Of a DNA stretch of 62,349 nucleotides, positions 7,053 to 58,354 are shown piece by piece. Position 1 is the stretch's first letter. Every line of letters begins with the position of its first letter. The notes under the pieces were generated by a model that ran no database searches, had not been told where the DNA came from, and saw only the letters and a list, made by a program, of their open reading frames with translations. Both the position numbers and the translations under genes were made by a program. Source of the stretch: Caldifarciminota bacterium (GTDB lineage Bacteria; Hydrothermota; UBA3072); assembly GCA_023131835.1 (NCBI GenBank), contig JAGLZA010000033.1, forward strand, positions 1 to 62,349. Reading direction: 5' to 3'.

Positions 7053-7184
7053 AATAACAACTCCTCCTAATATTAATAGTATTGGATGCACTACCATATA
7101 ATATAGACACTATCGTATATGTTATTACATATCTACTTATATATACATCTATAAAGTGCTTTAATCCAATTTTTGTATATTTTT

Positions 7185-13294: not shown

Positions 13295-13480
13295 CTATAT
13301 AAGAATAGTACCTTCTGTTCCCGACACCGTAGCTGGATCATCCGTTGTTAATGTATATTTTTTTGCATCCGCTCTTCCGATCAAATCATCCATTGTATAA
13401 TCTACACCCGCTGATCGATTTATGGTGTAATCGTCTGGACCATTTTTCCACCATGGCGGGGCTTGAAAATCTATAGACAT
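13295..13480 (-). CDS. Small hypothetical protein, 61 aa
   Basis: A short frame with a clear ribosome site (TTAGGAGGTAAGTT then ATG). The protein starts MSIDFQAPPWWKNGPDDY and is acidic with a two-Trp N-terminus. It sits 20 bases before the portal gene in the same operon. No family recognised; a minor head-neck component is possible. Confidence 0.55.
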   Translation of the reverse strand: MSIDFQAPPWWKNGPDDYTINRSAGVDYTMDDLIGRADAKKYTLTTDDPATVSGTEGTILI

Positions 13481-17800: not shown

Positions 17801-17977
17801 TGCCATCACATAATTCTTAAACCAAAAATCCTCAAAGATAAGTCGTTGAATAGGGGCTAAATCCACACCTAATAAATCATATGCCGCTATACATGGATTC
17901 TGCAAATAGAAATTAATTAACTCACTACCCGCCTCTAAAACCTCTCTATATTTTCTCTTTTCAGTCTGATGACTCAT
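14807..17977 (-). CDS. Terminase large subunit (TerL) interrupted by an in-frame intein, 1056 aa precursor
   Basis: The ATPase part has Walker A GRGGGKT (residues 62-68) and Walker B YLVLIDE (Asp642, Glu643 in the precursor). The nuclease part has YIIGVDPNQGG (Asp812), IFMDKGGGG (Asp867) and a late KKDLYSALLL acidic motif. These make a complete packaging motor that cuts and translocates DNA into the prohead. Between them lies about 470 residues foreign to terminases, with intein blocks and a LAGLIDADG endonuclease. Removing these joins APVFRQ... to SKMIFAEVEKLY, a normal TerL sequence. The mature protein would be about 581-589 aa. It overlaps the TerS candidate gene by 17 bases. Confidence 0.9.
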   Translation of the reverse strand: MSHQTEKRKYREVLEAGSELINFYLQNPCIAAYDLLGVDLAPIQRLIFEDFWFKNYVMAICGRGGGKTYLLGVLASLSCMLRPGYRVGLLAPVFRQSHVISDVISNTYDIFWTSDGLQTTAQNFYDSVEEGVTKIQSLESQNTILSKWKNPERACRSIKTTKGFELAGTVDHGILILNDKLDLIFKDLQDITKEDHVVIKKGFKYFGNDDSMPIFNEFKIDWRTKDCKIPRELTPDLAYWMGLMIGDGYVGINEVTGKYRVDFVNEDQDLLDSFERYLIEYFVDDPENIDRRNRKNKTWEIQYFRKKLAYYLLKCGFTVTTALDKKIPDVIKKASQECVKEFLIGLLDTDGHVYIQHYRNGAVHCEVALNTSSLQLAKEVQACFLNFGIMSNLGISKKAEHKCLIGRIKKSKCAEAYKVRITGLLNLNKFRDEIGFRCERKFDKLNIYLKSVEGSKTATDGVPYTAMAVKGLLTVCKDYFISISTGILDIGKLIRSCNRTHIVTVKKIKYSIELAEKYNILTEDYYKLKKIIDLDLSFVKMVESKYFFAPTIDVEVENESCYWSNGMISHNSKMIFAEVEKLYAQSSILREACDKPPTRGSDVCYLRFKSVGGMTPSYIEALPLGADGSKIRGSRFYLVLIDEFAQMPPKIIDTVLMPMGATSLAPMERVRRLEQKTHLISLGLASEDDFEQESVNKMIMTSSGFYKFNHMWKRMKDHWLQEDLAEKEGIEGQYAVWQVPYWDLPEGFLDQNNVDEAKRVMSSSEFRMEYEAEMVSDSEGFFKASLIESCSIDSGFTIEMRGDPKAQYIIGVDPNQGGRASCGIVILRIGTVNKIVNVLELRTQTTQQLTQIIQNLCDKLNVIRIFMDKGGGGKAVCDLLEEGYNGKTPIIDRTNDDHRHLSGSHILELIYFNPAWIADANFTVKSMLEDKKLLFPEPPIGSTLDIEAASYTTVTTLKSQMLNIIVTQTSTGILHFDTPQKGQKKDLYSALLLAAYGARVVEKEMEGEGDPVLFNSSGYVRPHNIQGATFDLITSQGGNVARKSVIHAAVLKKKFK
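16265..17665 (-). mobile_element. Intein with LAGLIDADG homing endonuclease inside terL
   Basis: Precursor residues about 105-571. Block A-like SNTYDIFWTSDG starts at Ser105. Block B is GFELAGTVDHGILIL with Thr169, Asp171 and His172. Two LAGLIDADG helices are at 237-250 (LAYWMGLMIGDGYV) and 343-353 (LIGLLDTDGHV). The C-terminal splice blocks read VENESCYWSNGMISHN followed by Ser572. The C-junction is clear. The N-junction is ambiguous: Ser105 fits block A spacing, while Ser97 (edge at 17689) gives the smoothest terminase sequence. Either choice gives a Ser rather than Cys at position 1. Homing activity is inferred from both intact endonuclease motifs. Confidence 0.85.
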
Positions 17978-25818: not shown

Positions 25819-26403
25819 TTAACCTTTTGACTTTTGTATCTTATCGACTAATCCATATTTCACTGCCTCTTCTGCCGTCAAAAAATGATCTCTTTCCATA
25901 TCTTTCTTGACCTTCACAAGTTTTTGTCCTGTTAACTGTACATAATGCCTAGCCATTTTCTCATAAGTATCCTCAATATGTCTATAATTCCCACGCATAT
26001 CTCCAGCCTTTCCTGTAACTCCACCTGAAAGTTCATGTATCATTATATTAGTATTTGGCAAAATAGATCGTTTACCTTTTGTACCGGCTGCTAATAATAA
26101 GGAAGCCGCACTAATACACCTACCAAACCCCATCGTAGCCACATCTGGCTTCACATAATTAATCGTATCAAAGATTGCATACATTGCATCAATCTCTCCT
26201 CCCTGAGAGTTTATATACATATTAATATCTACCTCATTATCATTTGCCTCTAAAAATAACAATTGTGCTACTATAGAATCCGCTAAATTTTGGTCAATCA
26301 CACCACGAATGAATACGATTCTATCACGTAAAAGTCGTGAGTAAAGATCATACACACGTTCCTGATCTCCTGGTCCTTTTTCAATTACATATGGTACTGA
26401 CAT
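25819..26403 (-). CDS. clpP: ClpP-type serine protease, 194 aa
   Basis: The protein aligns by eye over its whole length with bacterial ClpP. The catalytic triad appears intact: Ser98 in GRCISAASLLL, His123 in IMIHELSGG, Asp172 in MERDHFLTAEEA. Substrate-binding and oligomerisation segments are also present (INSQGGEIDAMYAIFD). ClpP forms a double-ring degradation chamber fed by an AAA+ unfoldase. No ClpX or ClpA gene is in the window, so it may use or compete with the host unfoldase. It has its own promoter with operator-like repeats. Because a separate prohead protease exists, this is probably not the capsid protease. Confidence 0.85.
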   Translation of the reverse strand: MSVPYVIEKGPGDQERVYDLYSRLLRDRIVFIRGVIDQNLADSIVAQLLFLEANDNEVDINMYINSQGGEIDAMYAIFDTINYVKPDVATMGFGRCISAASLLLAAGTKGKRSILPNTNIMIHELSGGVTGKAGDMRGNYRHIEDTYEKMARHYVQLTGQKLVKVKKDMERDHFLTAEEAVKYGLVDKIQKSKG

Positions 26404-45368: not shown

Positions 45369-45413
45369 ATTTTATTATTACCAATTTACTAAACTATTTT
45401 TTAGGTGACTATT

Positions 45414-45455
45414 ATCGGATTATTGATATCGGGTTATTGATATCGGGTTATTAGA
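45414..45455. repeat. Three tandem 14-bp iterons in divergent control region
   Basis: Units at 45414, 45428 and 45442 read ATCGGRTTATTGAT, with the third unit ending differently. They lie between the leftward promoters and the first rightward gene. Tandem iterons in such a place are typical of repressor or replication-initiator binding sites. Further right, GTAGTATA-type motifs (minus strand) occur at 45491-45498 and 45516-45523. Confidence 0.6.
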
Positions 45456-45588
45456 CTATATGGATGGGGATATTGTACTATACGGATTATTATACTACAA
45501 TTATATATGTATTATTATACTACTACATCGTGGTCATAACCTTTAAATCAACCCAAATTTATAGTGTGTGGGTACCTATATATGATAT

Positions 45589-45662
45589 AGAGACGTAATT
45601 GCGTCTCTAACAATTATAGGGCCCCCTTCCTTTAACTTTTGAGACTATGCTTTTGTCTCAAA
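45589..45662 (+). other. Two hairpins in the leader of the rightward operon
   Basis: Hairpin 1 has a perfect 7-bp stem AGAGACG/CGTCTCT (45589-45608). Hairpin 2 has a perfect 8-bp stem TTTGAGAC/GTCTCAAA (45638-45662). Both carry GAGAC/GTCTC arms. Neither is followed by a T run, so they are probably leader structures or processing sites rather than terminators. Confidence 0.5.
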
Positions 45663-45691
45663 CAGTGTTGTGAAGGATAAGCTCTTTGTCT

Positions 45692-45767
45692 CCTCCGATA
45701 AAGTGACGGACGGGTTTATTGGAGGCTTAACTCGAATTACCTCTCATTCCCGCCAATGATGTGATTT
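45692..45767 (+). promoter_or_regulatory. Leader element, copy 1 of 5
   Basis: An 11-bp stem (45692-45702 with 45715-45725, one wobble) presents GGACGGG in its loop. A second hairpin follows: outer stem GAATTAC/GTGATTT (45734-45740, 45761-45767), inner stem TCATT/AATGA and loop CCCGCC. The two loops can pair. The ribosome site and ATG of the 62-aa gene follow within 25 bases. Confidence 0.7.
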
Positions 45768-45789
45768 AACATTTGAAAGGAGAATTACC

Positions 45790-45978
45790 ATGTCTTTCAA
45801 CTCCTACACAACAACAGAGAAATGTACGCGTCATGCTGACCACATAGTAGAAGGTTTTCCCAAATTTAAATGCCCAGAATGTGGATGGATATTCTGTGAA
45901 GAATGTTCAGAATCTTGGCATTGTGGACAGCATGGATGTATCGATTGCCCAAGTTGTGATTTCCATATTGACATATAA
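45790..45978 (+). CDS. Small Cys/His-rich zinc-finger protein, 62 aa
   Basis: First gene of the rightward operon, with AAAGGAG before the ATG. Eight Cys and four His residues include CPECGWIFCEECSESWHCGQ and GCIDCPSCDF, a FYVE/RING-like two-zinc arrangement. A regulator or adaptor role is plausible. It is under control of leader element copy 1. Confidence 0.65.
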   Translation: MSFNSYTTTEKCTRHADHIVEGFPKFKCPECGWIFCEECSESWHCGQHGCIDCPSCDFHIDI

Positions 45979-45990
45979 TTCTTTTATTTC

Positions 45991-46064
45991 TTCTGGTAGA
46001 ATAACGGATGGGTCTATCAGAAATTAACTCGAATCACCTCTCATTCCCGCCAATGATGTGATTC
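45991..46064 (+). promoter_or_regulatory. Leader element, copy 2 of 5
   Basis: The first stem is TTCTGGTAGA/TCTATCAGAA (45991-46000, 46013-46022), different in sequence from copy 1 but again base-paired, with ATAACGGATGGG in the loop. The second hairpin has a fully paired stem GAATCAC/GTGATTC (46031-46037, 46058-46064), inner stem TCATT/AATGA and loop CCCGCC. It precedes an ORF that appears to start with ACG. Confidence 0.7.
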
Positions 46065-46085
46065 ATTTGAAAGGAGGAAAATAAA

Positions 46086-46313
46086 ACGAACCTTTACACA
46101 CTTACAAGTAACATAGGTAATCACAGTGATGGTAAATACGATTTTGTAGCAGAACAATGGTTAGATGTTATTGAGATGGCTGTAAAATTTGAAGAAGACT
46201 TTAACGAACATAAGGCTTTTAATCCTGACTACACTATCAAACTGGAACTATCTTCATATAATGCTAATGTAGTTCCAATCAAACCAGGTTTTATTGACAT
46301 AAGAAAAGGCTAA
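46086..46313 (+). CDS. Small protein with apparent ACG start, 75 aa
   Basis: An open frame follows a perfect AAAGGAGG site, but the codon at the expected spacing (8 bases) is ACG, and an in-frame TGA lies just upstream. The encoded sequence continues NLYTLTSNIGNHSDGKYDFV and ends GFIDIRKG. It reads like a real protein. The first ATG comes 30 codons later without a ribosome site. ACG initiation, a recent ATG-to-ACG mutation, or a sequencing error are the options. It is 12 bases from the next gene. Confidence 0.5.
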   Translation, partial: TNLYTLTSNIGNHSDGKYDFVAEQWLDVIEMAVKFEEDFNEHKAFNPDYTIKLELSSYNANVVPIKPGFIDIRKG

Positions 46314-46325
46314 AGGGAGGGTAAC

Positions 46326-46502
46326 ATGGAATTAATTATTGAAATTAAAACAACCAATGTCGCAGTGGAAGAAGTACCAGAAATCCTTGAACAGATTAAG
46401 ATTTCCTTTGGTAAAGGATATGTTAGGGGTGGTGGATGGGATGACAAAAAGGGTAAAGAATATTCTTTTAACACCCTATTTGTGAAAGAAGAAGGTGTTT
46501 AA
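46326..46502 (+). CDS. Small hypothetical protein, 58 aa
   Basis: The ATG follows AGGGAGGGTAAC. The product (MELIIEIKTTNVAVEEVPEI ... GGGWDDKKGKEYSFN) reads as a compact alpha/beta protein. A perfect 9-bp hairpin CTGTCTTTG/CAAAGACAG (46512-46536) follows ten bases after the stop, without a T run. Confidence 0.55.
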   Translation: MELIIEIKTTNVAVEEVPEILEQIKISFGKGYVRGGGWDDKKGKEYSFNTLFVKEEGV

Positions 46503-46594
46503 TTTTTGAACCTGTCTTTGGTATATTCAAAGACAGACTTGAGAAATTAATCTATATTTATTTATTTAAAATTATAAACTAAAGGAGAATAATT

Positions 46595-46777
46595 ATGGCC
46601 AAAAAAGGAGCATCATCATCAATACTTACATTTATAAAGTATGAAATGTCTTTAATAACGGAAATTGATAAAAGGGAAGATAAAAAACAAAAGACCAGTA
46701 TTCAATTCAGAGAATCATGTATTTTTACTACCTGTTCTATTATTGTTTCCAAACGTAAACAACGTAAACGAAAGTAA
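46595..46777 (+). CDS. Small basic protein, 60 aa
   Basis: Starts MAKKGASSSILTFIKYEMSL after AAAGGAGAATAATT. The C-terminus is very basic (SKRKQRKRK). A longer frame in another phase overlaps it, but that downstream gene has its own ribosome site at 46795. Function unknown. Confidence 0.5.
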   Translation: MAKKGASSSILTFIKYEMSLITEIDKREDKKQKTSIQFRESCIFTTCSIIVSKRKQRKRK

Positions 46778-46805
46778 AAATTTAGTGTCAGAGAAAGGAG
46801 GTATT

Positions 46806-47075
46806 ATGAAAAAGGATATGATTGAAATATGTGCATGGTGTAAGAGAATTAAAAAGGATAACGTTTATCAACCTTTCGATTTAGAAGCGGTTATAGAACT
46901 TGAAAAACGAACTGATATTACACTTACTCACGATCTCTGTCCGCTTTGTAAGAAGGAACAACAAAAAGAATTGGTAAAATTAGAACAAGAGTTAAAGAAA
47001 AAGAAATATATGAAAAAACTGAACCCGCCAATTAAAAAGGTTGATGAATTTAAAAGAAAGGAGGTGGAACCATGA
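46806..47075 (+). CDS. Small zinc-finger protein, 89 aa
   Basis: The start is the ATG after GAAAGGAGGTATT rather than the earlier in-frame codon at 46665. CAWCKRI and CPLCKKE knuckles about 32 residues apart suggest a zinc site, and a Lys-rich helix follows. It overlaps the next membrane-protein gene by four bases, so the two are coupled. Confidence 0.6.
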   Translation: MKKDMIEICAWCKRIKKDNVYQPFDLEAVIELEKRTDITLTHDLCPLCKKEQQKELVKLEQELKKKKYMKKLNPPIKKVDEFKRKEVEP

Positions 47076-47296
47076 CAACAAGATTTAAAACATATGCTGT
47101 AATAAAAGGTTGGGTTTCAACTACGTTTGGGATAAGTGTTTCTTTGGTAGAGTGGTTTTTTAATTCGTTGTTAGGTTTAATCTTATTCATAATATTTATA
47201 CTATATCCATCGTTACTTATGATTGTGGTAATATTAATTATTTGGCTTATTACTAAAATACATCAAGCCTACAAGCGAAAAGAACACCATTCATAA
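47072..47296 (+). CDS. Two-TM small membrane protein, 74 aa
   Basis: Two hydrophobic helices (LVEWFFNSLLGLILFIIFIL and LLMIVVILIIWLITKI) are joined by a short turn. The C-terminus is basic (HQAYKRKEHHS). Located among early genes far from the endolysin, so an inner-membrane host-takeover or exclusion role is as likely as a holin. Confidence 0.55.
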   Translation: MTTRFKTYAVIKGWVSTTFGISVSLVEWFFNSLLGLILFIIFILYPSLLMIVVILIIWLITKIHQAYKRKEHHS

Positions 47297-47337
47297 ATAA
47301 AACAATCAAATTATAAACTGAAAGGAGGTGGTGCCAT

Positions 47338-47376
47338 ATGATATTAATTGGCCTTTGGGTAACCCTTTATCAATAG
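47338..47376 (+). CDS. Possible 12-codon leader peptide
   Basis: A perfect AAAGGAGGTGGTGCCAT site precedes an ATG with only twelve codons (MILIGLWVTLYQ) before TAG. It may be a leader peptide or the remnant of a broken gene. The region 47297-47670 otherwise holds only the TTG-start frame at 47467 and its repeat. Confidence 0.35.
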   Translation: MILIGLWVTLYQ

Positions 47377-47466
47377 AATTGTGATACGATTTGAATCTAT
47401 CTAAAGTTCTAACTGTACAGGAGTTACATCATCTACAACTCATTTAATATTGGAGAAAGATTTATT

Positions 47467-47595
47467 TTGAATCACACAAAGGGTCATTCTAGTAAACAAA
47501 CTAATAGAAAGAAGTGTCAAGCAAATACCGTATGTTGTGCAGACATACCGAACTATGTAGTTAACCCATACTATGTAGCCAGGGACTTTCGCTAG
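47467..47595 (+). CDS. 42-aa TTG-start ORF A, member of a duplicated element
   Basis: TTG start 11 bases after GGAGAAAG. The peptide starts MNHTKGHSSKQTNRKKCQAN and aligns with ORF B at 52699-52827, which has the same length. DNA similarity extends about 35 bases past the stop (CGAGTTTTT...CCAGGACTGCAT versus CGAGTTTTT...CTAGGACCAT). It could be a coding duplicate or a conserved RNA element that happens to be open. A TCGCTAGCGA palindrome overlaps the stop. Confidence 0.4.
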   Translation: MNHTKGHSSKQTNRKKCQANTVCCADIPNYVVNPYYVARDFR

Positions 47596-47670
47596 CGAGT
47601 TTTTAATGCTTCCAGGACTGCATTATAAATATACATTTTTTGATTTTCAACTTTATAAAAAGGAGGAAAT

Positions 47671-47871
47671 ATGAAATCAATTAATTATTGTTGTTCCCCA
47701 TTAAAATATGCAATAAAGGATGGAAATATAATCCATCGTGAAGACAAAAGTAAATTTTACATCTATGGTTACCCAAGTTTTGCCGATGATGGTGACGGAT
47801 ACACTGATGATATGACAGAAACCACGGAAATAACACATTGTCCCTTTTGTGGAAAAAAATTATGTAAATAA
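47671..47871 (+). CDS. Small zinc-type protein, 66 aa
   Basis: CCSPLKYAIKDGN near the start and CPFCGKKLCK at the end give two Cys pairs. The middle is acidic (FADDGDGYTDDMTETTEITH). It has an AAAGGAGGAAAT ribosome site. A small zinc-binding protein, function unknown. Confidence 0.55.
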   Translation: MKSINYCCSPLKYAIKDGNIIHREDKSKFYIYGYPSFADDGDGYTDDMTETTEITHCPFCGKKLCK

Positions 47872-47899
47872 GATTATTTAAGAATTAAAAGGAGGACTT

Positions 47900-48109
47900 A
47901 TGGAAACAATGCCCATTTTGACATCTGTATCACTTGAAGGTACAGTAACAGTTTCTATTGAACAAGTTGGATATACATATCAGATAGATGCTGGTTTTAT
48001 ACCGGAGATACAAAAACTTTTTCAATATAAACCTTGGCACGCTTTAAATTTATTAAAACAGAAAGCGTATCATGTGTCTAAAAACACATTACAACAAAAA
48101 AGGAGGTAA
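47900..48109 (+). CDS. Small hypothetical protein, 69 aa
   Basis: Begins METMPILTSVSLEGTVTVSI, with a strand-rich N-terminus and a KPWHALNLLKQKAYHVSKN helix. The AAAGGAGGACTT site supports translation. No family recognised. Confidence 0.5.
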   Translation: METMPILTSVSLEGTVTVSIEQVGYTYQIDAGFIPEIQKLFQYKPWHALNLLKQKAYHVSKNTLQQKRR

Positions 48110-48114
48110 TAATT

Positions 48115-48402
48115 ATGATGGCTAAGATTGTTCTTCATTTTGACGAAACGCTTAATTTGTTATCGATATTCTCTACACAACCTACATGCAATAATATCCA
48201 ATTTAGACGTAAAGGAGGAGATAACAAGGTAATAATAAAACACCCACGAGAAGTTCGTCTGGCAATGGAGTTATTATTTGGTAAACCCATTAAACGTGTT
48301 ACAAAAGGAGAATATAGTGGAACAGTTGGGAGTTTCTTCGAATTTGAGCTCCCAGTGTCAGAATGTGGCGAATTTCTTCTCATCAAAAAACCAACAATAT
48401 AA
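48115..48402 (+). CDS. Small hypothetical protein, 95 aa
   Basis: Begins MMAKIVLHFDETLNLLSIFS after an AAAGGAGGTAATAATT site. The second Met may be the true start. The mixed alpha/beta product includes RKGGDNKVIIKHPREVRLAM and GTVGSFFEFELPVSECGEFL. Unknown family. It is just upstream of the first NADAR-like gene. Confidence 0.5.
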   Translation: MMAKIVLHFDETLNLLSIFSTQPTCNNIQFRRKGGDNKVIIKHPREVRLAMELLFGKPIKRVTKGEYSGTVGSFFEFELPVSECGEFLLIKKPTI

Positions 48403-48426
48403 CAAAAAAAAGGAGGTGAAAAAAAT

Positions 48427-48870
48427 ATGAACCCAAACCAAGATGGAAATACCCATATAAATATTTACTCTAGAGGAAAAACAGAATTAGGGCGGTTTTT
48501 AACTAATTTTGCTCATTCACCTATAATAACTGAAGACGGCCCTTTCACATCTATTGAAGGATATTGGTATTGGTTATCCAATAGAAATGAAAAAATGCGC
48601 AGCGTCTCTGGGGGAAATGCCAAAAAAGTTGGAAAAACCTATCCTAAAACAACACAATTATCAGAACAAGAATTTCAACGAAAAATAAGAGAAGCATGTT
48701 GGATTAAAATACATTCAAATAATGCTATGTTAAGATTATTCAAAATTTCTACATTACCATTTACCCATTATTATGTATTTGCTAATAATTTTGTAAAGGA
48801 TGCTGGGTATAAATGGATAATCGATATATGGGAATTGTTCCGAACTTTCATAAAAAATGATTATAAATAA
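48427..48870 (+). CDS. NADAR-like protein 1, divergent, 147 aa
   Basis: The opening INIYSRGKTELGRFLTNFAH and the TSIEGYWYWLSNRNEK motif resemble NADAR (YbiA/DUF1768) domains, which in other systems remove ADP-ribose from guanine bases of DNA. Several usual residues are changed: the conserved VEHFYQ-type motif reads IEGYWY and the terminal D-xx-WG motif reads KDAGYKW. Activity is therefore uncertain. It may be a substrate-binding paralogue of the canonical NADAR protein at 51.5 kb. Ribosome site AAAGGAGGTG. Confidence 0.55.
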   Translation: MNPNQDGNTHINIYSRGKTELGRFLTNFAHSPIITEDGPFTSIEGYWYWLSNRNEKMRSVSGGNAKKVGKTYPKTTQLSEQEFQRKIREACWIKIHSNNAMLRLFKISTLPFTHYYVFANNFVKDAGYKWIIDIWELFRTFIKNDYK

Positions 48871-48885
48871 AGGAGGTAACAAGCT

Positions 48886-49380
48886 ATGATTATGAAATGT
48901 AATTCATGTGGTTATGAAGGAATACCTAATTTGGAAGAAACAGGTCCACATACAAAAGCTCTTTGCCAACAATGTGGAAAATACATCAAAATGGTTGGCA
49001 AAGATGAATTAGACAAAATTGTCACTCAATCCACGAACTCCAAACTCAAAGTATGGACAGCACAGTACCGATACTCAGGTAAAGACCGTATTGATATCAC
49101 AGTTAAGTCAGCTGTATATCCATGGAATGTTTTTGCACCTACGTGGGAAATGGTAAGGGAATATAAACGTTCCGGAAATGAAGAAGTATATATCGGACAA
49201 TATAAAGCTATCATTGACAAAGCGTTTGAATTACATACTCAACAACTATCAACTTTGCTTAACTCTGATAGAACAATCACACTGGTATGCTTTTGCCCTC
49301 TAGGAAACTTCTGTCATAGAGTTCTCTTAGCAAAACATTTTGAATCACTCGGAGCTACTTATTACGGGGAAAGGAGGTAA
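48886..49380 (+). CDS. Zinc ribbon plus DUF488-like domain protein, 164 aa
   Basis: Residues 4-30 hold CNSCGYEG and CQQCGKY, an N-terminal zinc ribbon. The remainder reads like a DUF488 family member, including the closing motif ITLVCFCPLGNFCHRVLLAK. DUF488 proteins frequently occur with NADAR and SLOG genes; their reaction is not known. It sits between NADAR 1 and the macro-domain gene, supporting a shared pathway. Confidence 0.6.
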   Translation: MIMKCNSCGYEGIPNLEETGPHTKALCQQCGKYIKMVGKDELDKIVTQSTNSKLKVWTAQYRYSGKDRIDITVKSAVYPWNVFAPTWEMVREYKRSGNEEVYIGQYKAIIDKAFELHTQQLSTLLNSDRTITLVCFCPLGNFCHRVLLAKHFESLGATYYGERR

Positions 49381-49385
49381 ACACA

Positions 49386-49616
49386 ATGGGTATTAAATGG
49401 TTAAATAATTCATTTATAGCCAGTGGGGACACACTAGTATTATCTGAATTAATGGTTCTTCAATCAGCTGCCGGACACTATATCGGGCATCTATGTAAAA
49501 CAATAAAGTGCAACTGTAAAGATGAACATCTTGGGTGCATAGAACCATATGATAGATTATCCGGATATATGTCTTACGAACAAGCAACCAAACAATTACA
49601 AACAATAAGAAATTAA
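49386..49616 (+). CDS. Small Cys-containing protein, 76 aa
   Basis: Begins MGIKWLNNSFIASGDTLVLS and contains CKTIKCNCKDEHLGC in the middle, a likely metal or disulfide cluster. Ribosome site AAAGGAGGTAAACACA. Function unknown. Confidence 0.5.
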   Translation: MGIKWLNNSFIASGDTLVLSELMVLQSAAGHYIGHLCKTIKCNCKDEHLGCIEPYDRLSGYMSYEQATKQLQTIRN

Positions 49617-49628
49617 GGAGATAAACCT

Positions 49629-49964
49629 ATGGACACTAATTTCTTACCAAACGTCAAATGCCCACACTGCAACGCCAACATCGTTGTTGCTATATCTGGA
49701 TTTGGAAGTGAGCTGAATACAAGAGAGAAATTCTGTAATAAATGTAACAGGTCCTTCTTTCTTCATATATTAGTTCAAACTACTTTGTATAAAGAAGTTA
49801 TGGACGGGGAAATAAATTCTTACAAAAGTAGGATAAGTTTCCTTAACAAACAACGAAAAAAGACATTAACGGAACAGCTTGTCAATTACGAAATAGCTCA
49901 AGAGATTAATCGGGAAGCATTAAAAATGGCAACAGAAATGAGACGTAAAATGGACTTAAATTAA
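49629..49964 (+). CDS. Zinc-finger coiled-coil protein, 111 aa
   Basis: N-terminal CPHCNAN and CNKCNRS knuckles form a zinc ribbon. The second half is a charged helix (KSRISFLNKQRKKTLTEQLV...). It lies 12 bases before the macro gene. A DNA- or RNA-binding accessory role is possible. Confidence 0.55.
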   Translation: MDTNFLPNVKCPHCNANIVVAISGFGSELNTREKFCNKCNRSFFLHILVQTTLYKEVMDGEINSYKSRISFLNKQRKKTLTEQLVNYEIAQEINREALKMATEMRRKMDLN

Positions 49965-49976
49965 GGAGGTGATACT

Positions 49977-50432
49977 GTGGAATTCATTAATGAAGACATT
50001 ACAAATATAACTTTCGGTTTTGTATGTCATCAAGTCAATTGTCAAGGAGTTATGGGTGCTGGAGTTGCTTTGGCCATAAGAAAGAAATGGCCAGTTGCAT
50101 ATGCTGAATATAAACAAGCTTATACAAACGGTGCTCTCATATTAGGAAACATCATATTTGCTAAAATCCAAGCTGATCTATATGTAGTACATATATGTGG
50201 ACAAGACAGATATGGTCATATCGGTATATATACTAATTACGAAGCACTACACAAGGCAATTCATTCCCTTAGTGAAATGAGAAGAAAAGTAAGCAAGGAT
50301 ATAGGAGTAGTATTTCCTGTTTACTTTCCAAATGGAATGGGGTGCAGATTAGCCGGTGGTGACTGGAATGTTGTCATAAAAATCATTGAGAAATATATTC
50401 CTGATGCCAAAATCGTTAATTATACACATTAG
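49977..50432 (+). CDS. Macro domain protein (ADP-ribose binding/hydrolase), 151 aa, GTG start
   Basis: The GTG start follows AAGGAGGTGATACT. The protein is a single macro domain. FINEDITNITFGFVCHQVNC gives the first strand and conserved Asn. QGVMGAGVALAIRKKWPVAY gives the Gly-rich ADP-ribose loop. A second loop region reads CRLAGGDWNVVIKIIEKYI. It is most like the ALC1/TARG1/DarG or Poa1p branch that removes ADP-ribose from DNA, protein or phosphorylated ADP-ribose. In phage it could reverse ADP-ribosylation by host defence enzymes. Confidence 0.82.
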   Translation: MEFINEDITNITFGFVCHQVNCQGVMGAGVALAIRKKWPVAYAEYKQAYTNGALILGNIIFAKIQADLYVVHICGQDRYGHIGIYTNYEALHKAIHSLSEMRRKVSKDIGVVFPVYFPNGMGCRLAGGDWNVVIKIIEKYIPDAKIVNYTH

Positions 50433-50448
50433 GAAGAGGATAATAAAA

Positions 50449-50706
50449 ATGATAACACCAAAATCAATCCGGAAACAATGTAAACGTAAACAACCTAAAC
50501 GTATAATATCACGTTATTGTTATGTTAAATCAGGTGAACTAAGTGGTGACTTGTGTTTTATATGTCACAGTTTTATGGTAATGAATAAAACTAAGCACAA
50601 GTCAAAAAGGTATAATGGAAAACATGGATGGACGGTATATTGTCAAACTTGTGGAAGAGAAGTGGAATTTGTTTCATATACAGAAGATAATTCTGCCTAT
50701 AGATAA
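50449..50706 (+). CDS. Small zinc-type protein, 85 aa
   Basis: Start set at MITPKSIRKQCKRKQPKRII, after GGAAGAGGATAAT. A basic N-terminus is followed by CFICHSF and CQTCGREV knuckles about 35 residues apart. A nucleic-acid-binding zinc protein is plausible. It directly follows the macro gene. Confidence 0.55.
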   Translation: MITPKSIRKQCKRKQPKRIISRYCYVKSGELSGDLCFICHSFMVMNKTKHKSKRYNGKHGWTVYCQTCGREVEFVSYTEDNSAYR

Positions 50707-50731
50707 ATTATTATAAAAAGGAGGTGATATT

Positions 50732-51151
50732 ATGAATAAGATAGTCGGCAATGAAATGATTAAACAATTTGTTCTAGCGGGAAAATCAACCTTTACCATT
50801 AGGAATATTAAAACTGGAAATCGTTTCACATATTATGTACAAGCCAATCACGACCGTGTAGTATGGTTTGTTAAAGGTCTGGTCGGACCTAATTACAAAT
50901 ATTTCGGAACAATATTCTACAATGGTTTTCGTCAAACAAAAAAATCCAGAATCACAAGCAATACCACAATTGTAAAAGCTTTCAGTTGGTTTTGGAAACA
51001 ACTACACTTAGGGAGTCCTTTACCCGCTAAATTGGAAGTCTACCATGAGGGTATGTGTGGTCGTTGCGGCAGAAGATTAACTGTACCAGAATCGATTGAT
51101 GCTGGATATGGTCCAATATGTATTAAACTTATTAACGATGGACAAGTATAA
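50732..51151 (+). CDS. DUF6011-type protein with terminal zinc site, 139 aa
   Basis: Residues 15-90 (FTIRNIKTGNRFTYYVQANH...) form a beta-rich domain. The C-terminal GMCGRCGRRLTVPESIDAGY plus GPICIKL matches the DUF6011 zinc motif seen in many phage and plasmid proteins. The function of that domain is unknown. Its position inside the ADP-ribose module is notable but may be accidental. Confidence 0.6.
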   Translation: MNKIVGNEMIKQFVLAGKSTFTIRNIKTGNRFTYYVQANHDRVVWFVKGLVGPNYKYFGTIFYNGFRQTKKSRITSNTTIVKAFSWFWKQLHLGSPLPAKLEVYHEGMCGRCGRRLTVPESIDAGYGPICIKLINDGQV

Positions 51152-51163
51152 AGAGGAGTTATT

Positions 51164-51442
51164 ATGGATTTTATGGCAAAAAGAAGAATTTATCTAATAA
51201 AGGAACTCACTAAATCTGTGTATCCTACAACACAAATAATTTCTGGTGATATAACAATCGAAAAATATATTACAAGTATCGCAGATTTCTTGGCGAATGA
51301 GATAATTGACAGACGTATGCCAGTAGAAACATTATCCTTATTTGCTGAACTTGGAATATTACAAGTCCGCCAAAACAAAAATGTAGGAATACCGGCCCCA
51401 TTTCCACCAGCACCCCTCCCCTTCTTGCCTAAAAGAGCCTAG
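51164..51442 (+). CDS. Hypothetical protein with Pro-rich tail, 92 aa
   Basis: Starts MDFMAKRRIYLIKELTKSVY and ends in a Pro/Phe-rich tail (IPAPFPPAPLPFLPKRA). Helical middle. The tail may be a binding motif. Its stop lies 19 bases before leader element copy 3. Confidence 0.5.
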   Translation: MDFMAKRRIYLIKELTKSVYPTTQIISGDITIEKYITSIADFLANEIIDRRMPVETLSLFAELGILQVRQNKNVGIPAPFPPAPLPFLPKRA

Positions 51443-51460
51443 ATGTATCAAATAATTTAG

Positions 51461-51512
51461 CGGACGGGCTTACTTAATAAACCACCTCTCATTCCCGCCA
51501 ATGATGTGATTT
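51461..51512 (+). promoter_or_regulatory. Leader element, copy 3 of 5
   Basis: CGGACGGG (51461-51468) is followed by hairpin AAACCAC/GTGATTT (51479-51485, 51506-51512; one C-A mismatch) with inner stem TCATT/AATGA and loop CCCGCC. It lies 18 bases before the ATG of the second NADAR gene. No clear upstream stem around CGGACGGG is seen in this copy. Confidence 0.65.
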
Positions 51513-51529
51513 GAAAAGGAAATAATATC

Positions 51530-52009
51530 ATGAATACAATATCAATATTTAAAGGTAAGTATAATTTTCTTAGCAACTTTTTCACATTAGAAGTACCAAT
51601 AGCATATAATGGTATATCTTATCCAACAGTTGAGCATTTCTATCAAGCCATGAAAAGTTTAGGCCCAACAGATCCAGGAGCCTTAAATCCAGTTGACCGT
51701 ATAATAATAGCAGGTGATTCAAGTCCCTTTATGGCAAGAAACTTTGGGCGCACTATACGGCTAAGGCCCGATTGGGAAAATGCTAAAATTTCAGTAATGA
51801 GACTCGGGCTAATATTAAAGTTTGCAGCTAATCCTGAACTCAAAACTCAATTACTGAGCACCTGGGAAAGTGTACTTGTAGAAGGAAATCATTGGCATGA
51901 TAATATATGGGGTAATTGCATGTGCCCAAAATGTGCCAATACAAAAGGTCAGAATCTTCTCGGATATCTTCTGATGGAGGTAAGAGAATTATTTAGGTTG
52001 ATAAAATAA
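51530..52009 (+). CDS. NADAR domain protein 2 (YbiA/DUF1768), 159 aa
   Basis: A canonical NADAR protein: YNFLSNFFTLEVPIAYNGIS at the N-terminus, TVEHFYQAMKSLGP with the conserved Glu-His pair, a middle FGRTIRLRPDWENAKISVM, and the closing LVEGNHWHDNIWG. NADAR enzymes such as DarG1-type antitoxins hydrolyse ADP-ribose from guanine in DNA or cleave related N-glycosides. Full motif retention suggests activity. It carries leader element copy 3 and belongs with the macro, SLOG and DUF488-like genes. Confidence 0.85.
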   Translation: MNTISIFKGKYNFLSNFFTLEVPIAYNGISYPTVEHFYQAMKSLGPTDPGALNPVDRIIIAGDSSPFMARNFGRTIRLRPDWENAKISVMRLGLILKFAANPELKTQLLSTWESVLVEGNHWHDNIWGNCMCPKCANTKGQNLLGYLLMEVRELFRLIK

Positions 52010-52031
52010 ATTATTAAAAAAAGGAGATAAT

Positions 52032-52226
52032 ATGAATCATCTACAAAAACATTATGAAAGTTTATCAACGGAACAGTTAAGAGTAGAACGTTCTGAAATC
52101 CAAAAAAAGATTGAAGAAAACAACGGACGACTAACCGCCCATAGTTCTGCCGATTTGGATGATAACCTGGATACACGTGATATTATTGACAGAATTCTGG
52201 CAATTCGTTATAGTGAAAGTATATAA
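52032..52226 (+). CDS. Small helical protein, 64 aa
   Basis: MNHLQKHYESLSTEQLRVER and KIEENNGRLTAHSSADLDDN form a short coiled coil. It is placed between the NADAR and SLOG genes with a good AAAGGAGATAAT site. Function unknown. Confidence 0.5.
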   Translation: MNHLQKHYESLSTEQLRVERSEIQKKIEENNGRLTAHSSADLDDNLDTRDIIDRILAIRYSESI

Positions 52227-52267
52227 TAAAGGTCCATAACTTAAACTAATAAGAAGGAGGTAATATT

Positions 52268-52666
52268 ATGGAATTTAAAGTAGTTATTGCTGGTGGAAGA
52301 GATTTTGGAAATGTTAGACTACGTGGAGAATTACAAGCAAGCAGGGATTTTATTACATTATATAATGCTATGGACAGATTGTTGATAGACCAACTTAAAG
52401 CAAATACAATAACAATCATTTCCGGCGGGGCCCAGGGCGCTGATTCATTGGGAGAACGTTATGCACGAATGAGAAATTTCGGTCTTATTAGAATAAAGGC
52501 AGATTGGAACAAGTATAAGAAAAGTGCGGGTTTCATCAGAAACAAAGAAATGTTGCACCTTGCTGATGGTGTCGTATGCTTTTGGGATGAAAAATCCACG
52601 GGTACCGGACATATGGTTAAGATAACAAAAGGTTCGTTGATACCTTTAAAACTTATACTTTACTAA
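52268..52666 (+). CDS. SLOG-family (YspA/DUF2493) protein, 132 aa
   Basis: Motifs of the SLOG Rossmann fold are clear: KVVIAGGRDFGN, TIISGGAQGADSLGERYA, SAGFIRNKEML, and CFWDEKSTGTGHM. SLOG proteins bind or cut nucleotide derivatives, including ADP-ribose-type signals in Thoeris and CBASS-linked systems. DUF2493 members often sit next to NADAR and macro genes, as here. The product probably senses or processes a NAD-derived ligand. Ribosome site AAGGAGGTAATATT. Confidence 0.8.
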   Translation: MEFKVVIAGGRDFGNVRLRGELQASRDFITLYNAMDRLLIDQLKANTITIISGGAQGADSLGERYARMRNFGLIRIKADWNKYKKSAGFIRNKEMLHLADGVVCFWDEKSTGTGHMVKITKGSLIPLKLILY

Positions 52667-52698
52667 CCTAACACATATTAAAAGGAGATGATAAAATT

Positions 52699-52827
52699 TT
52701 GAATTATACAAAGGGTAATTTTAACAAACAAACTAGCAAGAAAACAAGTCAATTAGATAACGTATGGTATGTAAACATTTCACATTATGTAAACAACTTA
52801 AACTGTGAAGCCAAGAACTTTCATTAA
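52699..52827 (+). CDS. 42-aa TTG-start ORF B, member of a duplicated element
   Basis: Homologue of ORF A at 47467, starting MNYTKGNFNKQTSKKTSQLD with an AAAGGAGATG site. Same length of 42 residues, and DNA similarity continues past the stop. The two copies differ at many codon positions. Coding and RNA-element interpretations are both open. Confidence 0.4.
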   Translation: MNYTKGNFNKQTSKKTSQLDNVWYVNISHYVNNLNCEAKNFH

Positions 52828-52901
52828 CGAGTTTTTGATACATCTAGGACCATAAATAGTTTATTCATTTTTCATAATTACACGAATATAATCTCTAACA
52901 A

Positions 52902-52953
52902 CGGACGGGTTTATTTAACGAACTACCTCTCATTCCCGCCAATGATGTGGTTC
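52902..52953 (+). promoter_or_regulatory. Leader element, copy 4 of 5
   Basis: CGGACGGG (52902-52909) and hairpin GAACTAC/GTGGTTC (52920-52926, 52947-52953) with inner TCATT/AATGA and loop CCCGCC. Compared with copy 2 the fourth stem pair has changed from T-A to C-G, a compensatory change. It lies 17 bases before the ATG of the 97-aa gene. Confidence 0.7.
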
Positions 52954-52969
52954 ATTTGAAAGGTATACC

Positions 52970-53263
52970 ATGAACACAATACAAAGCACAGCCGTAAACA
53001 ACAATTCACCAATATCAGTGAAAAGAGTTAATGTTGAAAAACTGGTCTATAATCCATCCCATGTCAAAAACAATTGTATCATTTCTGAACAATGTATTAT
53101 TACCACACAACAAGAAACGTTTTCTGCCTGGGGTGTAACTGCTGAAGTATGTATAATCCATCTCATAAAAGGGGAAAGTCTCTGTTGCACATACATCTCA
53201 AAAAATGGTAAATTGGATGTTGTTCAAATAAATGGGTGTAATTCAACCAGGGTATCAAAGTGA
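52970..53263 (+). CDS. Hypothetical protein, 97 aa
   Basis: Begins MNTIQSTAVNNNSPISVKRV after an ATTTGAAAGG site. Beta-rich with several Cys (NNCIISEQCIITTQQE, GESLCCTYISKNG). Unknown family. Expression is likely tied to leader element copy 4. Confidence 0.55.
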   Translation: MNTIQSTAVNNNSPISVKRVNVEKLVYNPSHVKNNCIISEQCIITTQQETFSAWGVTAEVCIIHLIKGESLCCTYISKNGKLDVVQINGCNSTRVSK

Positions 53264-53294
53264 ATGTTATAAATAGATACAACTTAATAGAAAG

Positions 53295-53344
53295 CGGACG
53301 GACTCAACTTGAACTACCTTTCATTCCCGCCAATGATGTGGTTT
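53295..53344 (+). promoter_or_regulatory. Leader element, copy 5 of 5
   Basis: CGGACGGA (53295-53302) and hairpin GAACTAC/GTGGTTT (53311-53317, 53338-53344) with the same inner stem and CCCGCC loop. The flanking base C becomes T in the last pair but stays paired as G-U. It lies 37 bases before the ATG of the 76-aa gene, more than in the other copies. Confidence 0.65.
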
Positions 53345-53380: not shown

Positions 53381-53611
53381 ATGTACATAATAATAAGTGA
53401 TAACAATAAGTCGAAACAATGTATAGTCACCAATACAATTAAAATAAAGGATATCGAAAAAGACTGTATTAGGGTAATCTTAACACAAAAAGATTTTGAT
53501 ACTGGCCAAATAATAGACTTGGTTCTAGATCCAAGTGAGGCCGTAATCCTTGTAAAGAACCTGACAAAGACGATTATGGAAATTGCACTTCACAACATTT
53601 GCCCAAAATAA
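53381..53611 (+). CDS. Small hypothetical protein, 76 aa
   Basis: Begins MYIIISDNNKSKQCIVTNTI, alpha/beta with FDTGQIIDLVLDPSEAVILV and a helical end. Ribosome site AAAGGAGGTAAT. Unknown family; it follows leader element copy 5. Confidence 0.55.
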   Translation: MYIIISDNNKSKQCIVTNTIKIKDIEKDCIRVILTQKDFDTGQIIDLVLDPSEAVILVKNLTKTIMEIALHNICPK

Positions 53612-54475: not shown

Positions 54476-54522
54476 TCTTGTAAAAGAAAGGAGGTGATTA
54501 AATAACAAATAAAAAATTTGAA

Positions 54523-54583
54523 GGTCTCCCACCGGTCCACTACTTACTACCGTTCGACAGGTCTCACTCTCAAGGTCTCCCCC
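54523..54583 (+). repeat. GTCTCCC repeat pair in intergenic region
   Basis: AAGGTCTCCC (54521-54530) and AAGGTCTCCCCC (54572-54583) lie in a 177-base gap with a perfect but unused-looking AAAGGAGGTGAT at 54487-54498 and no start codon at usual distance. These are two of six such motifs between 54.5 and 58.7 kb. Confidence 0.5.
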
Positions 54584-54652
54584 TCACTTTACGATTATAT
54601 CATTTAACACATTAACCCAAACATACATCAATTTTTTAAAAGGAGGTAAATC

Positions 54653-54925: not shown

Positions 54926-54942
54926 AATAGGGTTTCCTGGTC

Positions 54943-55080
54943 AGTCTCCCCCGCTCAACAGGCTAAGCCAAGACCGAGGGGCGCCAAGTAATGTAGTAAA
55001 ACATTGTTGGTTTCTTGGTCTGGTTTAGCTTGTTGGTCTCTTGGTTGGCTTCTTAGTTGGCTTCTTGGTCAGTCTCCCCC
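54943..55080 (+). repeat. GTCTCCCCC motifs with TTGGTTTCTTGG-type direct repeats
   Basis: AGTCTCCCCC occurs at 54943 and 55071. Between them lie GT-rich direct repeats built on TTGGYTTCTTGGT (55007-55070) and a GC-rich segment CGAGGGGCGCC. The region 54926-55141 has no gene. The motif-plus-repeat pattern recurs at 56.7 and 58.6 kb. Confidence 0.5.
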
Positions 55081-55141
55081 TGCTTATTGGAGGCTATCCC
55101 TAAAACAAAATAAACAACTTTAACATTGAAAGGAGAGAAAA

Positions 55142-56710: not shown

Positions 56711-56747
56711 AAAGTTGTTGGTTTTGGCTTCTTGGTCGGTCTCCCCC
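56711..56747 (+). repeat. TTGTTGG...GGTCTCCCCC element
   Basis: The intergenic gap 56673-56815 contains AAGTTGTTGGTTTTGG and CTTCTTGGTCGGTCTCCCCC, a single copy of the motif seen at 54.5, 54.9, 55.1 and 58.6 kb. Confidence 0.45.
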
Positions 56748-56815
56748 GTCTTGTGAGTCTTAACTCTTTTTACCAATTTATTATTATTAACTATTAATTA
56801 AGAAAGGAGCAAAAA

Positions 56816-58354
56816 ATGCTAGATCAAACCTTGTCAACCGAAGAAGTGAAAGAACCCTTAAAACCAGTGAATCCTATCTTCATCAACACTCCAACAGGAA
56901 CACTCGCTGTATTTGGTCACGAGTATGTGGCCAAGGAAATGTTAAAATTGATAGGTACTATACTATCCCATGATGCTTTTGAAATAGAATATCATGGAAT
57001 AAAAAGTATCGTTTTCCGAACTGATGGCTATCCAAAAGAAAATGGTGTAAGTGTATGTGCAACATTCGCACCTGATGTTTGTGGTGTAGCCATTAACATG
57101 GAGAAAACACTGGAAAAAGCCATTGAACGAAGTATGGACCATCCAGAAATGTCACTACTGGCAAGCTGGTGGACTGAAATGCTCTTTAATTTCGGCCACG
57201 AAGTACATCATGGTGTCGCATGGAACGTTGAAAGAAAAGAGTTAGTAAATGATGAAACTAAACGCCAGGAAGAAGAAGAACAGGCCGAAGAGTATAGTGA
57301 TTCTTTAATGGTAACTTTGGCACAAGATTATGACATTGAACCTCCAGCAATCAAAGACGAGATCTGGTTTAATACCCAAATCACTGAATTATTATCAGGT
57401 AAAGCCGAAGATACTTGGGCAAAAAATCAGCAAGAAATGCTGGACAACAAATATCTCTGGAAACATGTCCCCGAAGAAGGGGAACCGGTCATATTGTCCA
57501 CTTTTAAAGATCTAGTCTGTTTAATCTTCAATGGAGATATTGAAGCAGATGAATGGAACAAAGATACAATCAAAATCCCGGTTGGTGTCAAAACACTAGA
57601 TGAGCAATTAAATGGTAAGAAAATTACCATTGACAGTTCATCTGATGATTTACCAATTGAACAAGACAATCCACTGGTACAAGACATGCCATCAACACAG
57701 ATATCTTACAACGAGGATGATGATATGGGTAGTTATGATATGTATCAAGAACCAATCACTATACCTATTCAAACTCCCGTTCAAACTCCTGTTCAAACTT
57801 CTGTTGCTCCAATCTTTCCCTCCACTCCGTTACCGGCAAACATCCATAGTTCAGGGATTCAATATGATGGAGCTACTATAAGTAGAATTGCAAGACAAGT
57901 TTATATGAAAATGTATGACTTCATCTTCAGAAACTGCAGCCCATTACGAGATTCTGATGTAGGATTTGCCAATCCAGAAGCAGTATGCAGCATCCCAGTA
58001 CCACTTACTGATGAAGAAAAGATAATATTCGTCAGTATGAACCACAATGATATTAATGGAAGATGGTGCTCAGATGTACCTACTACAAATGGATTGCTTG
58101 GCAAAATTATGAAGAACACCAAACTTCCATCATATGAACTCACTATGAATGTCAACGGGGTAACACACAAAAGATTACTCATACCTCAAAACCCGGCAAA
58201 GAGAAATGCAACTGGACAACTGACTCAACGTGCAGTAGAAGCTAGAGCTGGCAACTGCATAGCCTATATTATGAATCCAGATGACAACACAAATGCAAAA
58301 TGGGGTCCATACATAGTCAATAGAGAATATAAAACCCCTCAAATACAGTCATGA
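56816..58354 (+). CDS. HExxH metallopeptidase-like protein, 512 aa
   Basis: An N-terminal domain (residues 20-165) contains a zinc-peptidase motif FGHEVHHGVAWNVE with His128, Glu129 and His132, and a downstream acidic cluster EEEEQAEEYSD that could supply the third ligand. A long low-complexity linker (ITIPIQTPVQTPVQTSVAPI) leads to a C-terminal domain of about 150 residues with PAKRNATGQLTQRAVEARAG. Function of that domain is unknown. The gene lies near the SSB-like gene and may act in early takeover or DNA metabolism. Catalysis is inferred only from the HExxH motif. Confidence 0.6.
   Translation: MLDQTLSTEEVKEPLKPVNPIFINTPTGTLAVFGHEYVAKEMLKLIGTILSHDAFEIEYHGIKSIVFRTDGYPKENGVSVCATFAPDVCGVAINMEKTLEKAIERSMDHPEMSLLASWWTEMLFNFGHEVHHGVAWNVERKELVNDETKRQEEEEQAEEYSDSLMVTLAQDYDIEPPAIKDEIWFNTQITELLSGKAEDTWAKNQQEMLDNKYLWKHVPEEGEPVILSTFKDLVCLIFNGDIEADEWNKDTIKIPVGVKTLDEQLNGKKITIDSSSDDLPIEQDNPLVQDMPSTQISYNEDDDMGSYDMYQEPITIPIQTPVQTPVQTSVAPIFPSTPLPANIHSSGIQYDGATISRIARQVYMKMYDFIFRNCSPLRDSDVGFANPEAVCSIPVPLTDEEKIIFVSMNHNDINGRWCSDVPTTNGLLGKIMKNTKLPSYELTMNVNGVTHKRLLIPQNPAKRNATGQLTQRAVEARAGNCIAYIMNPDDNTNAKWGPYIVNREYKTPQIQS

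What the first reader, a model, noticed from the sequence alone, without database searches (positions are those of the whole stretch)
45692..53344. Five-copy structured leader element upstream of rightward early genes, apparently new
Seen: copies at 45692, 45991, 51461, 52902 and 53295, each with a CGGACGGG-like block, then a two-part hairpin with inner stem TCATT/AATGA and loop CCCGCC, 17-37 bases before a start codon. The outer stem varies but stays paired in four of five copies: column 4 changes T-A to C-G and column 7 changes G-C to A-T or G-U. Copies 1 and 2 also have an extra stem around CGGAYGGG with completely different but still paired arms. The CCCGCC loop can pair with GGACGGG, forming a kissing or pseudoknot interaction. 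Inference: a phage-encoded cis-acting RNA (riboswitch-like, translation enhancer or protein-binding leader). A DNA operator is the main alternative. I could not match it to a riboswitch class I know.
Basis: partly seen in the sequence, partly recalled or inferred. Interest (0 to 1): 0.88.

Follow-up and report, generated by a model that had tools for sequence, protein, structure and literature searches.

The report
Five-copy structured RNA leader in phage
A little-known phage carries five copies of the same small folded RNA element just in front of five early genes; it matches no known RNA family and was found in no other searched genome, and related phages carry known self-cutting RNAs in the same part of their genomes, so it may be a new kind of RNA switch or RNA-cutting element.

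Summary
Five copies of a ~60-nt element lie in gaps before small rightward early genes of a 62-kb tailed-phage contig (20-mer x5; none in 100 shuffles). Each has CGGAYGGR, an 8-10 nt linker and a two-part hairpin (7-bp outer stem, 5-bp inner stem, CCCGCC loop) ending 17-37 nt before the start codon. Two copies carry an extra hairpin holding CGGAYGGG in its loop; its arms differ by three compensatory and two one-sided changes, none broken. That is the strongest evidence for RNA rather than a DNA operator. The inner stem, loop and CGGAYGG do not vary, so the kissing pairing is possible but unproven. No Rfam family matches. Covariance-model and pattern searches of the MAG, its phylum, ~100 related phage records, IMG/VR, GTDB and INPHARED found no homologue. 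New context: related phages carry pistol ribozymes, a probable twister, a c-di-GMP-I riboswitch and another three-copy pseudoknot leader in the same early module. Verdict: a real, orphan, cis-acting leader RNA, very probably acting in the mRNA. The specific mechanism is open; 5'-end processing, possibly self-cleavage, ranks first, with protein binding close. A new ribozyme class is not excluded (about 0.15).

The parts
45692..45767 (+). Copy 1: extra stem P0 45692-45702/45715-45725 (11 bp), CGGACGGG 45707-45714 in its loop, outer stem 45734-45740/45761-45767, inner stem 45744-45748/45755-45759, loop CCCGCC 45749-45754
45991..46064 (+). Copy 2: P0 45991-46000/46013-46022 (10 bp), CGGATGGG 46005-46012, outer stem 46031-46037/46058-46064, inner stem 46041-46045/46052-46056, loop 46046-46051
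51461..51512 (+). Copy 3: CGGACGGG 51461-51468, no stable P0, outer stem 51479-51485/51506-51512 (one C-A mismatch), inner stem 51489-51493/51500-51504, loop 51494-51499
52902..52953 (+). Copy 4: CGGACGGG 52902-52909, no P0, outer stem 52920-52926/52947-52953, inner stem 52930-52934/52941-52945, loop 52935-52940
53295..53344 (+). Copy 5: CGGACGGA 53295-53302, no P0, outer stem 53311-53317/53338-53344, inner stem 53321-53325/53332-53336, loop 53326-53331; an A+T-rich hairpin (AACAAAT/ATTTGTT) follows before the Shine-Dalgarno sequence
45790..45978 (+). Gene after copy 1: 62-aa Cys-rich, probably zinc-binding protein (weak IBR/FYVE matches, below cut-off)
46086..46313 (+). Reading frame after copy 2: about 75 aa, likely ACG start 8 nt after GGAGG; no family match
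51530..52009 (+). Gene after copy 3: NADAR-domain protein, 159 aa
   Evidence: PF08719, 4.3e-27
52970..53263 (+). Gene after copy 4: 97 aa, no family match
53381..53611 (+). Gene after copy 5: 76 aa, no family match

Best explanation
The element is a cis-acting structured RNA in the 5' leaders of five early phage messages. Its core is the hairpin with the CCCGCC loop plus the upstream CGGAYGGG strand, joined by an 8-10 nt linker and probably closing as a kissing loop or pseudoknot. The outer stem and the optional P0 hairpin are peripheral supports. In this fold the Shine-Dalgarno sequence lies outside the structure, 3 or more nt downstream, so the drawn fold is not a simple ribosome-site blocker. 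I propose that it sets the 5' end and fate of each downstream cistron in the long early transcript, either by the RNA's own chemistry (self-cleavage) or through one shared protein or ligand that recognises the invariant core. Shown here: five copies, position, compensatory changes in two helices, an invariant core, structured RNAs in the same module of relatives. Inferred: transcription, the kissing pairing, the function. Among specific mechanisms I rank 5'-end processing (including self-cleavage) first at about 0.25-0.3, then protein-mediated control at about 0.2-0.25.
For: Copies far beyond chance and all sense-strand, in gaps just upstream of start codons. P0 in copies 1 and 2: 10/10 pairs each, 3 double-compensatory and 2 one-sided changes, 0 broken; outer stem: 2 pairs changed on both sides; outer plus inner stem 98% of cells paired, against 25-54% and no compensatory pair when slid. 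Periphery varies with compensation while inner stem, asymmetric internal loop (one C/T difference), CCCGCC and CGGAYGG stay fixed, as expected of an RNA recognised in sequence and shape. CGGAYGGR can pair with the loop in all five copies (-6.2 to -8.1 kcal/mol as a duplex). Linker length stays 8-10 nt whether P0 is present or not. No shared promoter hexamers at a fixed distance. In related phages the same early module holds pistol ribozymes (71, 65 and 49 bits), a sub-threshold but core-complete twister, a c-di-GMP-I riboswitch and a three-copy H-type pseudoknot leader with a compensatory change.
Against: Only five copies from one genome; the shuffle control for the outer stem is not significant (89 of 500 shuffles reach the covariation score). 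Folding energies are ordinary. P0 is missing from copies 3-5. No homologue in any collection searched. No expression data. The loop pairing has no compensatory support.
Confidence: 0.72

Rival explanations
1. A self-cleaving ribozyme of a class not in Rfam. The element cuts the polycistronic early RNA in each leader and leaves the downstream cistron with a defined 5' end and a free Shine-Dalgarno sequence.
For: Pistol ribozymes lie 30-60 nt upstream of small early genes in the equivalent module of G002/G024 and G027, two copies in one phage, with a probable twister nearby. Published logic: ribozyme classes replace one another in the same genomic niches, and pistol, hatchet and twister-sister were found that way (PMC10085705). 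Fixed core with variable, covarying periphery and a likely pseudoknot.
Against: No known ribozyme core: no pistol, twister, hammerhead or HDV-like match. A related strategy has produced candidates that did not cleave when tested (PMC10085705). Five copies in one phage exceeds the two seen for pistol. No cleavage site can be inferred.
Confidence: 0.17
2. A binding site for one phage or host protein that controls translation or decay of five early messages together, as a post-transcriptional regulon.
For: Five genes share an invariant hairpin-plus-strand core upstream of intact Shine-Dalgarno sequences. Such leaders fit known phage translational operators (general knowledge of T4 RegA and gp32 and of RNA-phage coat proteins).
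Against: No candidate binding protein was identified; the invariant linear CGGAYGG block is larger than most protein sites need.
Confidence: 0.22
3. A small-molecule riboswitch. The most interesting version senses a nucleotide-type signal, because the surrounding genes (NADAR, DarG-like macrodomain, SLOG, DUF488) look like ADP-ribose or nucleotide chemistry.
For: A c-di-GMP-I riboswitch lies in the same module of G027. Copy 3 precedes a NADAR gene, and a DarG-like macrodomain and a SLOG protein are neighbours. Invariant core with variable periphery.
Against: No Rfam aptamer matches. Downstream genes share no function; no terminator follows the elements, and no conserved pairing with the Shine-Dalgarno sequence was found.
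Confidence: 0.13
4. A DNA element: operator, enhancer-like site or replication/recombination repeat recognised in double-stranded DNA.
For: The block is repeated, rich in invariant bases and partly dyad-symmetric; transcription of it is not shown.
Against: P0 keeps pairing through five changed pairs in two copies, which a DNA-binding protein would not require; all copies point the same way, at 17-37 nt from start codons; no promoter at a fixed distance.
Confidence: 0.12

Closest known systems
Pistol self-cleaving ribozyme (Rfam RF02679)
   Same: Small pseudoknotted RNA in leaders of small early genes; occupies the same genomic module in related phages.
   Different: No match to the pistol model. 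Here the pairing strand lies 5' of the hairpin, whereas in pistol the hairpin loop pairs with a downstream strand; the conserved pistol bases are absent.
Twister ribozyme (RF03160 and relatives)
   Same: Pairing of a CCC-containing loop with a GGG strand; a probable twister lies in a relative's early module.
   Different: Lacks the UAA...GC, CCCAAGCC and GAGGG core; no model match in this genome.
Riboswitches with loop-loop contacts (e.g. purine class; from general knowledge)
   Same: Copies 1 and 2 can place two hairpins side by side joined by a loop-loop contact.
   Different: No three-way junction, no Rfam match, no common metabolic gene downstream.
Three-copy H-type pseudoknot leader of related phage G030 (found here: L262 8254, 10267, 13664, minus strand)
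   Same: Repeated, phage-specific pseudoknotted leader before small early genes, with a compensatory change among copies.
   Different: Unrelated sequence and topology (CUCGGA..GC..CUGGCUGAGGUUAAACUUGU.GC); also not in Rfam.

Membership tests
Pistol ribozyme | Match to the RF02679 covariance model | tested here: not met
   Zero matches in the whole MAG including the window at E<=0.01; none
Twister ribozyme | Match to a twister model or the conserved L1/L4 core | tested here: not met
   No twister-P1 match in G000; other types not matched
Hammerhead ribozyme | CUGANGA and GAAA core with a cleavable UH | tested here: not met
   Nearest string is AUGAUGU; no Rfam match
Self-cleaving ribozyme (any class) | Site-specific self-cleavage in vitro | not testable with these tools
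   Needs bench work
Known riboswitch classes | Match to an Rfam aptamer model | tested here: not met
   (4227 families, E up to 10)
Structured cis-acting leader RNA | Located in the 5' leader, sense strand, before the start codon | tested here: met
   17-37 nt from stem end to start in all five
Structured cis-acting leader RNA | Covariation supporting the helices | tested here: inconclusive
   P0: 3 compensatory pairs between two copies; outer stem: 2 pairs, not significant against shuffles; inner stem and loop pairing invariant or nearly so
Structured cis-acting leader RNA | Present in the transcript | not testable with these tools
   No RNA data
DNA operator or promoter element | Fixed spacing to promoter hexamers | tested here: not met
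   Best hexamer pairs sit at different distances and most are poor

The most novel reading that the evidence does not exclude
The element is a new structural class of self-cleaving ribozyme, used five times in one phage to cut its early polycistronic RNA into separately processed messages, in a genomic niche where related phages use pistol and twister ribozymes.
Probability: 0.15. Interest if true: 0.9.

Novelty: new variant of a known kind. Interest (0 to 1): 0.58.

Why it matters
If it is a ribozyme or riboswitch, it adds a class to a short list and comes with five natural variants to test. Whatever the mechanism, the related phages show that this lineage repeatedly fills the leaders of its early genes with structured RNAs of unrelated kinds. 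That makes a concrete question testable: why do these phages need folded or self-cutting RNA in front of small early genes, in a module that also looks like a counter to ADP-ribose-based defence?

Tried and rejected
Rfam with curated and permissive thresholds, whole region and one copy alone: nothing. Exact 16-mer core in IMG/VR: 55 hits, none with a GG[AC][CT]GG block within 60 nt upstream, many of them one recurrent unrelated sequence. Spaced pattern in IMG/VR: one chance hit in a coding stretch. Loop kept with stems free: none. Stem kept with loop free: one coding hit. GTDB pattern scan: three hits in alphaproteobacterial genomes, judged chance and not examined further. INPHARED and PLSDB blastn: only short chance matches. 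Covariance model R1 on about 100 related phage records: nothing above 16 bits against 73-88 for the true copies, and the best ones shown lack the core; on the MAG's phylum: only the five copies. Shared promoter just upstream of the elements: not supported. Sequestration of the Shine-Dalgarno sequence by ACCUYU: complementarity is short and inconsistent among copies (read from the sequences). HDV-like and hammerhead readings: no P3/P1.1, no CUGANGA core. Searching relatives for other repeated leaders: G030 has one; the repeats in G019 are coding, those in G011 look like promoters and those in G012 like terminators.
Full report
What the window is. The window is a complete contig (C257) of a 3.89-Mb metagenome-assembled genome. 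It is a tailed-phage contig: terminase large subunit with a large insertion that looks like an intein (14807-17977), major head protein (5979-7097), weak portal match (11421-13274) and ClpP-like head protease (25819-26403) by PHROGs. Its capsid protein is 80-90% identical to many IMG/VR contigs, so it belongs to a large uncultivated phage family. No terminal repeat was found, so it may be incomplete. Leftward genes end near 45.3 kb and a rightward module of small genes starts at 45.79 kb.

The observation. Five copies of the core TCATTCCCGCCAATGATGTG occur, with none in 100 shuffles. Each is preceded by CGGAYGGR 26-37 nt upstream. The gap from outer stem to start codon is 17-37 nt. About 80% of the module is coding, and a random 60-nt block would fall wholly in a gap 11% of the time, so five of five is about 2e-5. 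Four of the seven inter-gene gaps of 50 nt or more between 45.8 and 54.65 kb carry the element, and copy 1 sits in the leader of the first gene.

Evidence for RNA. The best evidence is the extra hairpin P0 in copies 1 and 2. Both arms pair over 10 positions around a 12-nt loop that holds CGGAYGGG; perfect stems of this geometry occur at 1.4e-4 of window positions. Comparing the two copies, positions 1, 4 and 9 change on both sides (C-G to U-A twice, A-U to G-C), positions 5 and 6 change on one side and keep pairing, and none breaks. A DNA-binding protein has no reason to preserve this. The outer stem adds two pairs changed on both sides, with one C-A mismatch in copy 3; with five sequences this is not significant against shuffles (89 of 500), though structures slid by one to three columns pair in only 25-54% of cells with no compensatory pair. 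The inner stem, CCCGCC loop and CGGA.GG are invariant, so they neither support nor oppose pairing. Folding energies are ordinary.

Architecture. The linker between the CGGAYGGR strand (or the 3' arm of P0) and the outer stem is 8-10 nt in all copies (read). GG-(A)-CGGG can pair with CCCGCC with a bulged A, -6.2 to -8.1 kcal/mol as isolated strands. A six-base loop can pair fully in kissing complexes such as TAR-TAR* (general knowledge), so the geometry is possible. In copies 1 and 2 this would be a loop-loop contact, in copies 3-5 a pseudoknot with a free strand. The Shine-Dalgarno sequence lies outside this fold. The pattern is a sequence-fixed core with helices that vary by compensation.

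Search for relatives. No Rfam family matches. A covariance model (R1) finds only the five copies in the MAG and its phylum, and nothing credible in about 100 phage records of the same family. Pattern scans of IMG/VR and GTDB and blastn against INPHARED and PLSDB gave no credible match. At this depth the element is an orphan.

What related phages carry in the same place. Using the 512-aa protein at 56816-58354 as a marker, homologous early modules were found in seven records; NADAR added one more record, G010. In G002 and G024, which share the same two pistol scores and are probably near-identical phages, two pistol ribozymes lie directly upstream of small early genes (71.3 and 49.0 bits), with a probable twister between them (24.5 bits, below threshold, but with UAA..GC, UCCCAAG.CC and GC.GAGGG all present). 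In G027 a pistol (65.3 bits) and a c-di-GMP-I riboswitch (66.3 bits) lie in the same module. In G030 a three-copy H-type pseudoknot leader (GCCAC/GUGGC in two copies, GCUGC/GUAGC in the third) precedes small genes and matches no Rfam family. These sit about 3-8 kb upstream of the marker gene; the window's elements sit 3.5-11 kb upstream of it. This lineage therefore places structured RNAs of unrelated kinds in its early leaders. The reasoning that one ribozyme class can stand in for another in the same niche is published and led to pistol, hatchet and twister-sister (PMC10085705); the same paper reports candidates found by a similar strategy that did not cleave. It is a lead, not proof.

Mechanism. 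I commit to a cis-acting leader RNA that sets the 5' end or fate of each downstream cistron (0.72 for the RNA class of explanation). Within it, processing including self-cleavage ranks first (0.25-0.3, of which a new self-cleaving class 0.15-0.17), protein-mediated control next (0.2-0.25), riboswitch about 0.13; a DNA operator remains at about 0.12. Downstream genes are diverse: a Cys-rich small protein, NADAR, and three unknowns. The module also encodes a DarG-like macrodomain, a SLOG protein and a DUF488 protein, which fits counter-defence against ADP-ribose-based systems, but no ligand is implied.

Novelty and verdict. It is not a member of any Rfam family tested. As a kind of thing, a repeated structured leader in a phage, it is a new variant of something known. 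If it cleaves itself or binds a new ligand it would be a new class.

Noticed in passing
L264:10332-10400 and 13324-13390 (G002); L266:10707-10775 and 13699-13765 (G024); L270:11663-11732 (G027): Pistol self-cleaving ribozymes directly upstream of small early genes in phages related to the window's phage.
   Followed up: yes
L264:11722-11781: Probable type-P1 twister ribozyme below the Rfam threshold (24.5 bits) with the conserved core letters present.
   Followed up: partly
L270:13092-13170: c-di-GMP-I (GGC) riboswitch in a phage early module, upstream of a small gene.
   Followed up: partly
L262, minus strand, near 8254, 10267 and 13664: Three copies of an H-type pseudoknot leader CUCGGAnGCnnCUGGCUGAGGUUAAACUUGUnGCA before small genes of phage G030, with a compensatory change in the second stem; not in Rfam.
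   Followed up: partly
window 54929-54957, 55057-55085, 56724-56752: A second repeated leader motif, TTGGCTTCTTGGTCRGTCTCCCCC, upstream of genes 55142 and 56816; related GGTCTCCC strings at 54520-54590.
   Followed up: no
window 47467-47640 and 52699-52860: Two paralogous 42-codon TTG-start frames whose similarity continues past the stop (R*RVFNASRT and H*RVFDTSRT, with synonymous differences), suggesting stop-codon readthrough or an RNA-level constraint.
   Followed up: partly
window 46086-46313: Frame after copy 2 has an ideal Shine-Dalgarno sequence but ACG where ATG is expected.
   Followed up: no
window 45413-45690: Divergent control region with three tandem TATCGGGTTATTGA repeats and two inverted repeats sharing GAGAC/GTCTC (GAGACG..CGTCTC and TTTGAGAC..GTCTCAAA), possible operators.
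   Followed up: no
window 14807-17977: Terminase large subunit appears to be interrupted by a large intein-like insertion with homing-endonuclease-type matches.
   Followed up: no
window 49977-50432, 51530-52009, 52268-52666, 48886-49380: DarG-like macrodomain, NADAR, SLOG (YspA) and DUF488 proteins together: looks like a counter-defence set against ADP-ribose-based systems.
   Followed up: partly
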